A DNA stretch of 64,000 nt from Sulfolobus acidocaldarius SUSAZ (GTDB lineage Archaea; Thermoproteota; Thermoprotei_A; Sulfolobales; Sulfolobaceae). The notes beneath the pieces are model-generated. The model was not told where the DNA came from. It did no database searches and saw only the letters and a list, made by a program, of their open reading frames with translations. This document shows positions 9,724 to 60,872 of the stretch, piece by piece. The stretch spans positions 124,001 to 188,000 of the forward strand of contig CP006977.1 in the NCBI GenBank assembly GCA_000508305.1, read 5' to 3'. Every line of letters starts with the position of its first letter. The first letter of the stretch is position 1. The position numbers and the translations under genes are program-made.

Positions 9724-10512
9724 TTAAAGCGTAGCCCTAATAGCTCCACCATCTACTGGTATTAAAACACCATTTACATAAGTTGCTAAACTTGAAGCCA
9801 GAAATATTATAACATTAGCAACTTCCTCTGGACTCCCAAATCTCCTAAGTGGAATATCTCTTGTTACTTCGTCGATCACCTGTTCCTCGGTCTTATTCTC
9901 GTTCTTTGCCCTATTCTTAACAACTTCTTTTAACCTATCTGTCAACGTCCAACCCTGCATTATTCCATTCACTAAAATACCTTTAGGTCCTAGTTCCCTT
10001 GAGGCTACTTTTATTAGACCTGCTAAGGACAGTCTTACCACATTGGACAGGTCTAAATTATCCATTGGTTGCTTTAAGGTAAATGAGGTAGCTAATATAA
10101 TTCTTCCATCCTTTCCCATTCTTTTACCTGCCTCTCTTACTGCGACCACTGCGCTCATTAATAGTAAGTTAAATGCATTCCTCCAGTCCTCATCTGTCAA
10201 AGTCATTAGATCTCCTGGCTTTGGACTACCAGTATTATATACGAATATGTCTAGTCCATTTAACATCTTATAGCCTTCATCTATGAGCTTTACAACATCA
10301 TAAGTCTTGGTTAAATCTGCCGTAATATAATGAACCTTACCTATACTCTTTAATTTCTCATATGCTGAAATAAGGTTCTTTTCGTCATGTGAGGATATGA
10401 TTACCTCTGCACCCTCTTCAACAAACCTCTTTGCCGTAGCAAACCCTATTCCCTTGCTAGAGGCTGTGACAATTACTTTTTTACCTTTTATTCCTAGATC
10501 TATCTTCTCCAC
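9724..10512 (-). CDS. Short-chain dehydrogenase-like protein with unusual active site
   Basis: A 262-residue classical SDR fold. The cofactor loop is present (T16 to G23, ASSKGIG), as are the NTG-like segment near residue 90 and a conserved C-terminal PVDGG. The usual Y-x3-K catalytic pair is not seen: the aligned stretch LSNVVRLSLAGL has Ser and Arg in those positions, though the upstream serine (ATSFT) remains. The protein may therefore be catalytically different or non-oxidoreductive. Its start overlaps the end of the uracil-DNA glycosylase gene by 32 nt, so the two form an operon. Substrate unknown. Confidence 0.75.
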   Translation of the reverse strand: MEKIDLGIKGKKVIVTASSKGIGFATAKRFVEEGAEVIISSHDEKNLISAYEKLKSIGKVHYITADLTKTYDVVKLIDEGYKMLNGLDIFVYNTGSPKPGDLMTLTDEDWRNAFNLLLMSAVVAVREAGKRMGKDGRIILATSFTLKQPMDNLDLSNVVRLSLAGLIKVASRELGPKGILVNGIMQGWTLTDRLKEVVKNRAKNENKTEEQVIDEVTRDIPLRRFGSPEEVANVIIFLASSLATYVNGVLIPVDGGAIRATL

Positions 10513-11122
10513 CTAAGAAGAATTCAATCGTATATCTTTTTGAATCTTTCGAAACGTTTATAAGTTTCTTTATCATCTTAAAGTCATCCTCAAGCACACT
10601 TCTTAGGTTTGGGTTATATAATGCGGCAGCAGGATGATAAGTCGGAAATATCTTTATGGAGTCCTGGTCAATTTTCCATTCATACACTTTTCCCCTACTT
10701 TTAGTTATGGAACGGAATTGAATATTAGCCTTTGAGAGAATATAAGAAGTCGAATGTCTACCTAATGTAACAATTAACTGTGGCTTTATTAATTTGATTT
10801 GAAGATCAAGATATGATGAACATGCAGTGATCTCGTTTTCTTCAGGGTCTCTATTATTTGGTGGTCTACATTTGACAACATTTGTTATGAAAACTTCGTC
10901 TCTTTTAATACCCAGGGTGTCTTCTATCAGTCTAGTGAGTAGTTTTCCAGCTGAACCGACAAAAGGTCTTCCTTCTTCATCCTCAGTTTCACCTGGAGCT
11001 TCTCCAATAAACATAACCTTTGCCTTGGGATTCCCTTCACCGGGAACAGCGTTCTTTCTGTTCATCCAAAGTTTACACTTTCTACAAACTTTAATTTCGT
11101 TAGCTATCTCATCTAACTCCAT
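10481..11122 (-). CDS. Family 4 uracil-DNA glycosylase
   Basis: A 213-residue UDG of the thermophile iron-sulfur type, which removes uracil from DNA to counter cytosine deamination at high temperature. Four cysteines that bind the [4Fe-4S] cluster are visible at 13, 16, 85 and 101. Motif A is GEAPGETEDEEGRPFVG (40-56), and a YHPAAAL motif near residue 162 supplies the catalytic-site histidine. The 5' end is close to a C/D box sRNA on the same strand, whose D box ends about 30 nt upstream of the ATG. Confidence 0.93.
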   Translation of the reverse strand: MELDEIANEIKVCRKCKLWMNRKNAVPGEGNPKAKVMFIGEAPGETEDEEGRPFVGSAGKLLTRLIEDTLGIKRDEVFITNVVKCRPPNNRDPEENEITACSSYLDLQIKLIKPQLIVTLGRHSTSYILSKANIQFRSITKSRGKVYEWKIDQDSIKIFPTYHPAAALYNPNLRSVLEDDFKMIKKLINVSKDSKRYTIEFFLGGEDRSRNKR

Positions 11123-11149: not shown

Positions 11150-11205
11150 TATCAGGTTATCGACCCTTCTTCATTGCTCAGCCTATGTCGACGTCATCAT
11201 AATTG
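11150..11205 (-). ncRNA. C/D box guide sRNA
   Basis: Minus-strand RNA with the full archaeal C/D architecture: C box ATGATGA (11194-11200), 12-nt guide, D' CTGA (11178-11181), 3-nt spacer, C' ATGAAGA (11168-11174), 12-nt guide, D CTGA (11152-11155). The two 12-nt guide spacings are those typical of Sulfolobus 2'-O-methylation guides bound by L7Ae, Nop5 and fibrillarin. The guides are CGTCGACATAGG (D') and AGGGTCGATAAC (D). By the D+5 rule each would direct methylation of a U in its target. I could not identify the rRNA or tRNA target by eye. A TATA-like AGTATATTAA near 11243-11252 may be its promoter. Confidence 0.82.
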
Positions 11206-11275
11206 TACCCCACCCGGCTGAGAATCCTCATTGACATGGGTTAATATACTCAGATTCGGGAGGAGGGTGGGGGTA
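11206..11275. repeat. GC-rich inverted repeat beside the sRNA gene
   Basis: Left arm TACCCCACCC (11206-11215) pairs with right arm GGGTGGGGGTA (11265-11275), with one extra G in the right arm. Shorter complementary pieces lie inside (CCCG/CGGG and GAATC/GATTC). The block is strikingly G/C-rich for this genome, and its plus strand carries closely spaced G runs at 11258-11273. It lies just upstream of the C box on the minus strand and ends about 50 nt before the GTG of the next plus-strand gene. Its role is unknown. Confidence 0.5.
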
Positions 11276-12164: not shown

Positions 12165-13022
12165 ATGGAAGGAGTAGTACCCGCAATTGTCACTCCCTTT
12201 AAGGAAAATGAAGATATTGATTTTGAATCTCTAAATTTATTTTTGAATTTTCTTGGGAGAAATGGAGTTAAGTGGATATTCGCTTTAGGTAGTACTGGAG
12301 AATTTAATATGTTAAGTTTAAGTGAGAAGCAAGAGTTTATAAGAAAACTGAGAGAGATAACAAAACTCAAAATAATAGTCAATGTCTCTGAAAATTCTCT
12401 TAAGAACACACTCTCATTGGGTAAGCTAGCTTTTGATGTGGGCATGGAAGGAATTGCACTCATTCCTCCAATATATCATAAGCCTTCTGAAAGTGGGCTA
12501 ATCAGCTATTTTGAGGAGATGTCGAAATTAGGTCTTCCATTATATGTTTACGCATATCCTGACAAGGTTCCCATAACATATGAGACAATAAGTAAGTTAG
12601 TGAAGCAAGATATTATAGATGGAATTAAGTTGACCACTGATAACTTACCTTTATTCAAGAAATATTTAGGTCTAAAAGAAATTAAGAATGACCTGAAAAT
12701 CCTGATAGGGAGCGATACTTTATTTATATACTCATTAATTGAGGGCGGTAATGGATGCATATCAGCAGTAGCTAACGTCGCCCCGGAGTTAATGATGAGG
12801 GCATATCAGGGAGTAAGAGAAGGTAAGTTAAATGAGAGTTTAGAGATTCAAGAGATGATATCAAAGATAAGTGATGCAATAATGAGTGGAGATTTTCCCT
12901 CAGGTGTAAAGGTAGCCCTGAGGTATAGAGGGGTAAGTGTAGGAAGTGTAAGGAGACCCTTAAAGGAGAGTATTGAGGTGAATGCTCGTATATACTCAGT
13001 TCTGAAAGAGCTCGGAATGTGA
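12165..13022 (+). CDS. DapA/NanA/KdgA-family class I aldolase
   Basis: A 285-residue member of the dihydrodipicolinate synthase / N-acetylneuraminate lyase / 2-keto-3-deoxygluconate aldolase superfamily. The Schiff-base lysine is K155 in DGIKLTTDN, the catalytic tyrosine is Y131 in VYAYPDK, and the pyruvate-carboxylate loop is GSTGE (42-46). Sulfolobales make lysine through aminoadipate, so a true DapA role is unlikely; a sugar-acid or hydroxyacid aldolase is more plausible. It does not resemble the well-known Sulfolobus KdgA closely enough to use that name. The C box of an sRNA begins one base before its TGA stop codon and overlaps it. Confidence 0.8.
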   Translation: MEGVVPAIVTPFKENEDIDFESLNLFLNFLGRNGVKWIFALGSTGEFNMLSLSEKQEFIRKLREITKLKIIVNVSENSLKNTLSLGKLAFDVGMEGIALIPPIYHKPSESGLISYFEEMSKLGLPLYVYAYPDKVPITYETISKLVKQDIIDGIKLTTDNLPLFKKYLGLKEIKNDLKILIGSDTLFIYSLIEGGNGCISAVANVAPELMMRAYQGVREGKLNESLEIQEMISKISDAIMSGDFPSGVKVALRYRGVSVGSVRRPLKESIEVNARIYSVLKELGM

Positions 13023-13074
13023 TGAGGGGTCGATGTTACTGATCAATTGATGAGATTATCTCCGGCTGAGAAGC
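13014..13074 (+). ncRNA. C/D box guide sRNA overlapping the aldolase stop codon
   Basis: Plus-strand RNA with all four boxes in register: C GTGATGA (13019-13025), 13-nt guide, D' CTGA (13039-13042), 4-nt spacer, C' TTGATGA (13047-13053), 12-nt guide, D CTGA (13066-13069). The C box overlaps the TGA stop of the aldolase gene, so the RNA may be processed from, or compete with, that message. The guides are GGGGTCGATGTTA (D') and GATTATCTCCGG (D). The D' guide shares the core GGGTCGAT with the D guide of the sRNA at 11150-11205. The flanking ends are estimated, not seen. Confidence 0.8.
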
Positions 13075-60817: not shown

Positions 60818-60872
60818 ACTCAGGATGGGAAGCGATCTTCATCAGTCTGTAAACCGTCACATCATCATTATA
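60818..60872 (-). ncRNA. Candidate C/D box sRNA in the leader of the PD-(D/E)XK-like gene
   Basis: Minus strand: C box ATGATGA (60862-60868, or ATGATGT at 60859-60865), D' CTGA (60842-60845), C' ATGAAGA (60836-60842, overlapping D' by one base), 12-nt guide TCGCTTCCCATC, D CTGA (60820-60823). The D guide has the exact 12-nt spacing and the C' box is identical to that of the sRNA at 11150. The D'/C' overlap is unusual, and the first guide is 13 or 16 nt, so confidence is lower than for the other two. Confidence 0.5.

What the first reader, a model, noticed from the sequence alone, without database searches (positions are those of the whole stretch)
11150..11205. Complete C/D box sRNA gene upstream of the uracil-DNA glycosylase
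On the minus strand all four boxes fit the archaeal consensus (ATGATGA, CTGA, ATGAAGA, CTGA), with 12-nt guides on both sides and a 3-nt D'-C' gap. That combination is improbable by chance. The two guides are CGTCGACATAGG and AGGGTCGATAAC. By the D+5 rule both would methylate a U.
Basis: partly seen in the sequence, partly recalled or inferred. Interest (0 to 1): 0.6.

Follow-up and report, generated by a model that had tools for sequence, protein, structure and literature searches.

The report
Fused pseudouridine and methylation guide RNA
The proposed archaeal guide-RNA gene is real, its two guides fit the heart of the ribosome and follow a base change there in other archaea, and in this genome it sits directly behind a second guide RNA for a tyrosine tRNA.

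Summary
It is conserved: 29 of 31 family genomes carry it full length and one more in part. C/D-only homologues with the same two guide cores occur in other families of the order.

The conserved 8-nt cores are exact complements of 23S AUGUCGGC and AUCGACCC. Predicted 2'-O-methylation sites are U2504, in the peptidyl-transferase loop, and U2479 (E. coli numbering). Where the 23S has C2504 the guide's +5 base is G (14 of 14); where it has U2504 it is A (39 of 39).

Its guide covaries with each genome's tRNA-Tyr intron (0 of 200,000 shuffles as good), so it is probably the known Psi35 guide of 'Sso1' type. The halves probably form one transcription unit. Expression and modification are untested. 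The C/D half may already be in the S. acidocaldarius catalogue, which I could not open.

The parts
11204..11272 (-). H/ACA box guide hairpin, 5' half of the composite gene: lower stem, pocket, upper stem with K-turn-like GA/TGA, ACA box
   Evidence: Sequence; fold z -2.3; 29-sequence MAFFT/RNAalifold: 15 pairs, 11 with double changes that keep the pair; CM R2 finds it at E 1.3e-17, though it was built with this sequence
11265..11272 (-). H/ACA lower stem, 5' strand CCCCACCC (pairs with 11208-11215)
11259..11264 (-). H/ACA 5' guide TCCTCC, complementary to the tRNA-Tyr intron (GGAGGG, displaced 5 nt in this genome)
11216..11220 (-). H/ACA 3' guide CAGCC, complementary to GGCUG34 of pre-tRNA-Tyr
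11208..11215 (-). H/ACA lower stem, 3' strand GGGTGGGG
11204..11206 (-). ACA box, 14 nt after the U at 11221
11152..11200 (-). C/D box sRNA, 3' half of the composite gene
11194..11200 (-). C box ATGATGA
11182..11193 (-). D' guide CGTCGACATAGG; core GTCGACAT pairs 23S AUGUCGGC, N+5 = own 23S U2638 (E. coli U2504)
11178..11181 (-). D' box CTGA
11168..11174 (-). C' box ATGAAGA
11156..11167 (-). D guide AGGGTCGATAAC; core GGGTCGAT pairs 23S AUCGACCC, N+5 = own 23S U2613 (E. coli U2479)
11152..11155 (-). D box CTGA
10481..11122 (-). UDG-superfamily uracil-DNA glycosylase, next gene downstream on the same strand
   Evidence: Pfam PF03167 E 9.7e-39; within 40 nt of the sRNA on the same strand in 16 of 30 genomes

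Best explanation
A composite guide-RNA gene. One minus-strand transcript carries an H/ACA guide followed at once by a double-guide C/D sRNA. Processing and protein binding (L7Ae, Nop5 and fibrillarin on the C/D part; L7Ae, Cbf5, Nop10 and Gar1 on the H/ACA part) give two modification RNPs. The C/D RNP pairs eight bases of each guide with 23S domain V and methylates the riboses of U2504 (D' guide) and U2479 (D guide; E. coli numbering). Holding both sites at once, it may also chaperone helix 89. The H/ACA RNP pairs with the exon-intron junction of pre-tRNA-Tyr and makes Psi35 before splicing. Shown here by sequence: the architecture, its conservation, the helix covariation, and the covariation of guides with targets (5' guide of the H/ACA with the intron; D' guide with 23S position 2504). 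Inferred: transcription as one unit, processing, RNP assembly and the modifications themselves.
For: All boxes in register, 0 of 100 shuffled windows with such a site. Full-length composite in 29 of 31 family genomes, plus the C/D part in G004. The core consensus 8-mers occur once each as exact complements in own 23S, 25 nt apart; 0.02% of permuted core pairs do so within 100 nt. The D' +5 base follows 23S position 2504: A with U in 39 of 39, G with C in 14 of 14, no exception among the 53 of 80 parsed loci whose 23S was found. H/ACA stems: 11 of 15 pairs with compensatory changes in 29 sequences. The H/ACA 5' guide pairs its own genome's tRNA-Tyr intron directly after U35-A36 in 21 of 27 genomes, 17 of them with six Watson-Crick pairs; 0 of 200,000 shuffles reach this. 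ACA box and C box lie between one shared base and 6 nt apart (read), too close for a separate promoter.
Against: No RNA data were available. In own genome the D' core has one G.U pair (GTCGACAT), and position +3 of the D' duplex and +1 to +3 of the D duplex are unpaired, so both miss the nine-Watson-Crick-pair rule of Dennis 2015 (PMC4644070, Methods read). In all seven g7 genomes the D' core is damaged at +8 or +7/+8 (GCCTACAT, GCCAACAT, GCCTGCAT, GCCTTCAT) and in G001 at two positions. The 2504 covariation rests on one independent contrast on the 23S tree, because the U2504 members of f2 gave no sRNA hit. In g1 (own) and g11 the H/ACA 5' guide pairs well only with a 4-5-nt displacement into the intron.
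Confidence: 0.82

Rival explanations
1. The two RNAs are only neighbours: each is made and works on its own, and the adjacency is a historical accident without function.
For: They are unlinked in G004 (L233 against L141) and outside the family the C/D homologues read stand alone. In several genera the H/ACA overlaps the 3' end of a protein gene whose transcription could supply both.
Against: The near-zero gap is kept in 29 genomes while flanking genes change. A mechanical need for co-transcription is inferred, not shown.
Confidence: 0.35
2. The C/D half is a real sRNA but its main targets are elsewhere (tRNA or mRNA), and the 23S matches are coincidental.
For: Only 8 pairs per guide. Longer partial matches occur by chance in DNA around tRNA genes, e.g. 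CCTATGTTGGCT in L012 at 189, outside the tRNA at 1501-1576.
Against: Both cores hit 23S 25 nt apart (null 0.0002), the conserved window is exactly the complementary window, and the +5 base follows U/C2504 in 53 of 53.
Confidence: 0.08
3. The element is a K-turn leader of the UDG mRNA through which L7Ae regulates UDG translation.
For: The sRNA ends within 40 nt of the UDG start in 16 of 30 genomes; L7Ae regulates K-turn leaders in S. acidocaldarius (PMC5539422, passages read).
Against: In g6, most of g7, g8 and g9 the UDG is farther off or on the other strand, yet the RNA is kept; leader regulation does not explain guide/target covariation.
Confidence: 0.05

Closest known systems
[quoted passage not shown] acidocaldarius set: Omer 2000, recalled; Dennis 2015, PMC4644070)
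   Same: Box order, spacing, two guides aimed at sites under 100 nt apart in one rRNA, N+5 rule, placement next to ORFs
   Different: Core duplexes of 8 bp, below the usual 9-bp cut; the same guide pair is kept across several families, whereas that paper stresses guide drift; joined to an H/ACA guide. Whether it is one of the 61 Sac sRNAs could not be checked (supplement not readable here).
Sso1, the H/ACA sRNA for pre-tRNA-Tyr Psi35 (Muller 2009, not held; told in PMC4652768 section 15 and PMC7991803 passages)
   Same: Sulfolobales, target U35 of tRNA-Tyr(GUA)
   Different: Identity with the Sso1 sequence was not tested because the paper is not held; adjacency to a C/D sRNA is not mentioned in what I read
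Dicistronic tRNA-C/D transcripts and clustered C/D genes in archaea (Tripp 2017, as told in PMC7994747 section 8)
   Same: C/D sRNA matured from a joint precursor whose other part is a stable RNA
   Different: The partner here is an H/ACA guide
Eukaryotic scaRNAs with both C/D and H/ACA domains (recalled)
   Same: Both guide types in one gene product
   Different: Here the two parts lie in line, are probably cut apart, and aim at rRNA and a pre-tRNA; no homology is claimed

Membership tests
Archaeal C/D box sRNA | C, D', C', D boxes in order with guides of about 10-13 nt | tested here: met
   kept in the family alignment, though D' is degenerate in g6 and g7
Archaeal C/D box sRNA | Guide complementary to a stable RNA with a Watson-Crick pair at N+5 | tested here: met
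   23S AUGUCGGC and AUCGACCC; +5 pair kept through U/C2504
Archaeal C/D box sRNA | At least nine consecutive Watson-Crick pairs (Dennis 2015 general rule; relaxed there for some double guides) | tested here: not met
   8 bp per guide; own D' includes one G.U. It is a prediction rule, not a definition of the class
Archaeal C/D box sRNA | Expressed and bound by L7Ae/Nop5/fibrillarin | not testable with these tools
   no RNA data; supplement tables not available
Archaeal H/ACA guide RNA | Hairpin with lower stem, two-sided pocket and upper stem, kept by covariation | tested here: met
Archaeal H/ACA guide RNA | ACA box 14-16 nt from the pseudouridylation site | tested here: met
   14 nt in own sequence; ruler from PMC7991803 passages
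Archaeal H/ACA guide RNA | K-turn or K-loop 5-6 nt above the pocket | tested here: inconclusive
   invariant GA and near-invariant TGA flank the 5-6-bp upper stem; not modelled in 3D
Sso1-type Psi35 guide | Pairs either side of U35-A36 of its own pre-tRNA-Tyr | tested here: met
   21 of 27 directly, 6 of 27 with the 5' part displaced by 4-5 nt, own genome among the 6
Sso1-type Psi35 guide | Sequence orthology with published Sso1 | not testable with these tools
   primary paper not held
Rfam C/D families sR2, sR9, sR14 | Score above the curated gathering cut-off | tested here: not met
   19.7-22.4 bits against 36-42

The most novel reading that the evidence does not exclude
The composite stays one bifunctional RNA: a single archaeal guide RNA with an H/ACA domain for tRNA-Tyr Psi35 and a C/D domain that methylates the peptidyl-transferase base 2504, so that decoding of tyrosine codons and maturation of the catalytic centre share one molecule. 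It would be an archaeal counterpart of the mixed-domain scaRNAs, and an unrelated H/ACA-C/D pair in another family (L230) hints that the design recurs.
Probability: 0.12. Interest if true: 0.75.

Novelty: new variant of a known kind. Interest (0 to 1): 0.5.

Why it matters
If right, a C/D guide conserved across families of an order marks the ribose of residue 2504 in the peptidyl-transferase loop. It is a case where a guide RNA follows a base change at its own modification site, strong comparative evidence for a target short of chemistry. The eight-base cores suggest that nine-base cut-offs call some real archaeal double guides orphans. The joined H/ACA-C/D gene is a small, genetically tractable model (S. 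acidocaldarius) for how two guide classes are made from one precursor.

Tried and rejected
The wrong strand of the rRNA loci was scanned first and redone. An rRNA target for the H/ACA (23S U2960) was dropped when the tRNA-Tyr intron covaried. The guide window was off by one column (6040 of 100,000 shuffles as good there) and was corrected. The first parse of the +5 base put some loci in the wrong register and left others out; the cleaner parse is, where 80 of 88 loci given were parsed and 8 (G140, G050, G053, G092, G187, G189, G062, G049) were not. G197 (another order; both cores, poor D') was left out of that count. H/ACA model hits outside the family were taken at first for orthologues; of those read most carry a different 3' guide (CGGTC), so only Sulfolobaceae members are counted as Psi35 guides. 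The search for related loci with UDG gave only two distant bacterial loci. Four held genomes (G023, G009, G019, G014) have no readable 23S at this place, so they are missing from the 2504 count. The independence test for 2504 reached one pair only and cannot be significant; the same run rejects one clade for C2504 (p-AU 0.016, quick tree). A cryo-EM paper of the S. acidocaldarius ribosome (PMC10516650) was searched for modification terms and gave nothing relevant.

Full report
Observation. A search for that architecture finds 2 sites in the window and none in 100 dinucleotide shuffles. Rfam at the gathering cut-off names only a tRNA and an sR11 C/D RNA (13015-13070 plus) in the window. With a lax cut-off, three C/D families fit this locus end to end below their thresholds.

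Where it is. The window is 124001-188000 of a single 2,061,920-base contig. The sister genome G023 has 2,225,959 bases, the size I recall for S. acidocaldarius DSM 639; organism names for G handles are recalled from sizes and come from no call. The downstream gene is a UDG-superfamily protein. In the family, sRNA and UDG are on the same strand within 40 nt in 16 of the 30 genomes where both were placed; in the other 14 they are farther apart or on opposite strands.

The missed half. Homologues found by blastn (15 of 31 genomes with any hit at E<=1, of which nine loci are real by inspection) showed conservation running upstream of the C box. The upstream 70 nt form a hairpin: 8-9-bp lower stem, pocket, 5-6-bp upper stem with flanking GA/TGA, and an ACA box 3 nt before the C box in this genome; in relatives the distance runs from one shared base to 6 nt. 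A covariance model of the whole composite finds it full length in 29 of 31 family genomes; G004 has the C/D part only and G022 gave nothing. On a separate MAFFT alignment of the 29 sequences RNAalifold returns the same hairpin, with 11 of 15 pairs changed on both sides in at least one sequence. The 29 sequences include the nine used to build the model.

H/ACA target. The 3' guide CAGCC complements GGCUG34 of pre-tRNA-Tyr; U35 and A36 stay unpaired; the 5' guide complements the intron that follows. The 5' guide and the intron change together: 21 of 27 genomes pair directly (17 with six Watson-Crick pairs, 2 at score 5.5 and 2 at 5.0 of 6), and 0 of 200,000 shuffles of the distinct guide/intron pairs reach the observed mean, with or without the TCCTCC group. 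In own genome, its sister and four g11 genomes the match is displaced by 4-5 nt. U35 of tRNA-Tyr is the target of Sso1, described as experimentally validated in S. solfataricus (PMC4652768, section 15 read; PMC7991803, passages). The primary paper is not held. In G004 a hairpin of this type stands alone at another locus (its pairing with the intron was read by eye), so the joined state is either a gain within the family or was lost in G004.

C/D targets. Across homologues the kept letters are the eight bases at +4 to +11 of each guide. The consensus cores GCCGACAT and GGGTCGAT are complements of 23S AUGUCGGC and AUCGACCC, each found once in own 23S (2637 and 2612) and not in 16S; permuted cores do this within 100 nt in 0.02% of 200,000 draws. 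Own D' core is GTCGACAT, one G.U pair short of perfect. N+5 falls on 2638 and 2613, aligned to E. coli U2504 and U2479. In f3 and part of f2 the 23S has C at 2504, and there the guide has G at +5. Of 88 loci given, 80 were parsed and 53 of these have a readable 23S: A with U 39, G with C 14, no exceptions; 27 have no 23S found. A 23S tree of 37 rows needs two changes at the site and rejects a single C2504 clade in a quick AU test (p 0.016), but only one independent contrast carries both traits. So the match is striking but does not amount to many events.

Context and evolution. In g6 the H/ACA lies wholly inside the 3' end of an ORF that ends in the C box (L102 ORF 1042-1575); in g7 an ORF ends inside the hairpin (L107). 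PMC7994747 (section 8 read; section 4 part 1) describes C/D genes overlapping ORF ends with the stop codon in the C box, and tRNA-C/D dicistrons, and does not mention an H/ACA-C/D pair in those parts. In L230 (G034, family f5) a different H/ACA is followed after 3 nt by a C/D sRNA with other guides (read by eye), so such pairs may recur; this was not pursued. Paper searches on the point listed nothing that describes such a pair, but the library cannot be searched for 'H/ACA' as printed and many older papers are not held, so absence from print is not claimed.

Verdict. The most likely reading is a composite guide gene with a peptidyl-transferase-centre methylation guide and a tRNA-Tyr Psi35 guide. 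The C/D half is a new or already catalogued member of a known kind; the joined arrangement is a variant. S. acidocaldarius small-RNA catalogues (61 C/D in PMC4644070 Table 1; 62 C/D and 2 H/ACA in PMC5539422) may include both parts, which I could not check.

Noticed in passing
window 13015-13070 (+): Rfam sR11 C/D box sRNA (41.1 bits, cut-off 39) overlapping the last bases of the DHDPS-family ORF that ends at 13022.
   Followed up: no
window 60820-60868 (-): A second site with full C/D'/C'/D architecture; not in Rfam's gathering list.
   Followed up: no
23S of G032, G042, G052, G070, G077, G085, G091, G096 (f3) and G060, G100, G110, G115, G125, G139, G148 (f2): Cytidine at the position equal to E. 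[quoted passage not shown] PMC9976906, on rare U-to-C changes in archaeal 23S, does not hold the term 2504 in its main text.
   Followed up: partly
L230 (G034), L239 (G063), family f5: A different H/ACA hairpin (3' guide CGGTC) followed by a C/D sRNA with other guides, 3 nt after the ACA box in L230 and about 20 nt after it in L239 (sequences, read by eye): perhaps an independent H/ACA-C/D pair.
   Followed up: no
L231, L232, L234, L236, L238, L242, L243 (other families of the order): The same CGGTC-type H/ACA hairpin, widely conserved before GGGCGGGG(T/C)ACA; its target was not sought.
   Followed up: no
L102 1042-1575 (+): H/ACA sRNA read through as the C-terminus of a protein, with the stop codon in the C box: the same bases serve protein and guide RNA.
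   Followed up: partly
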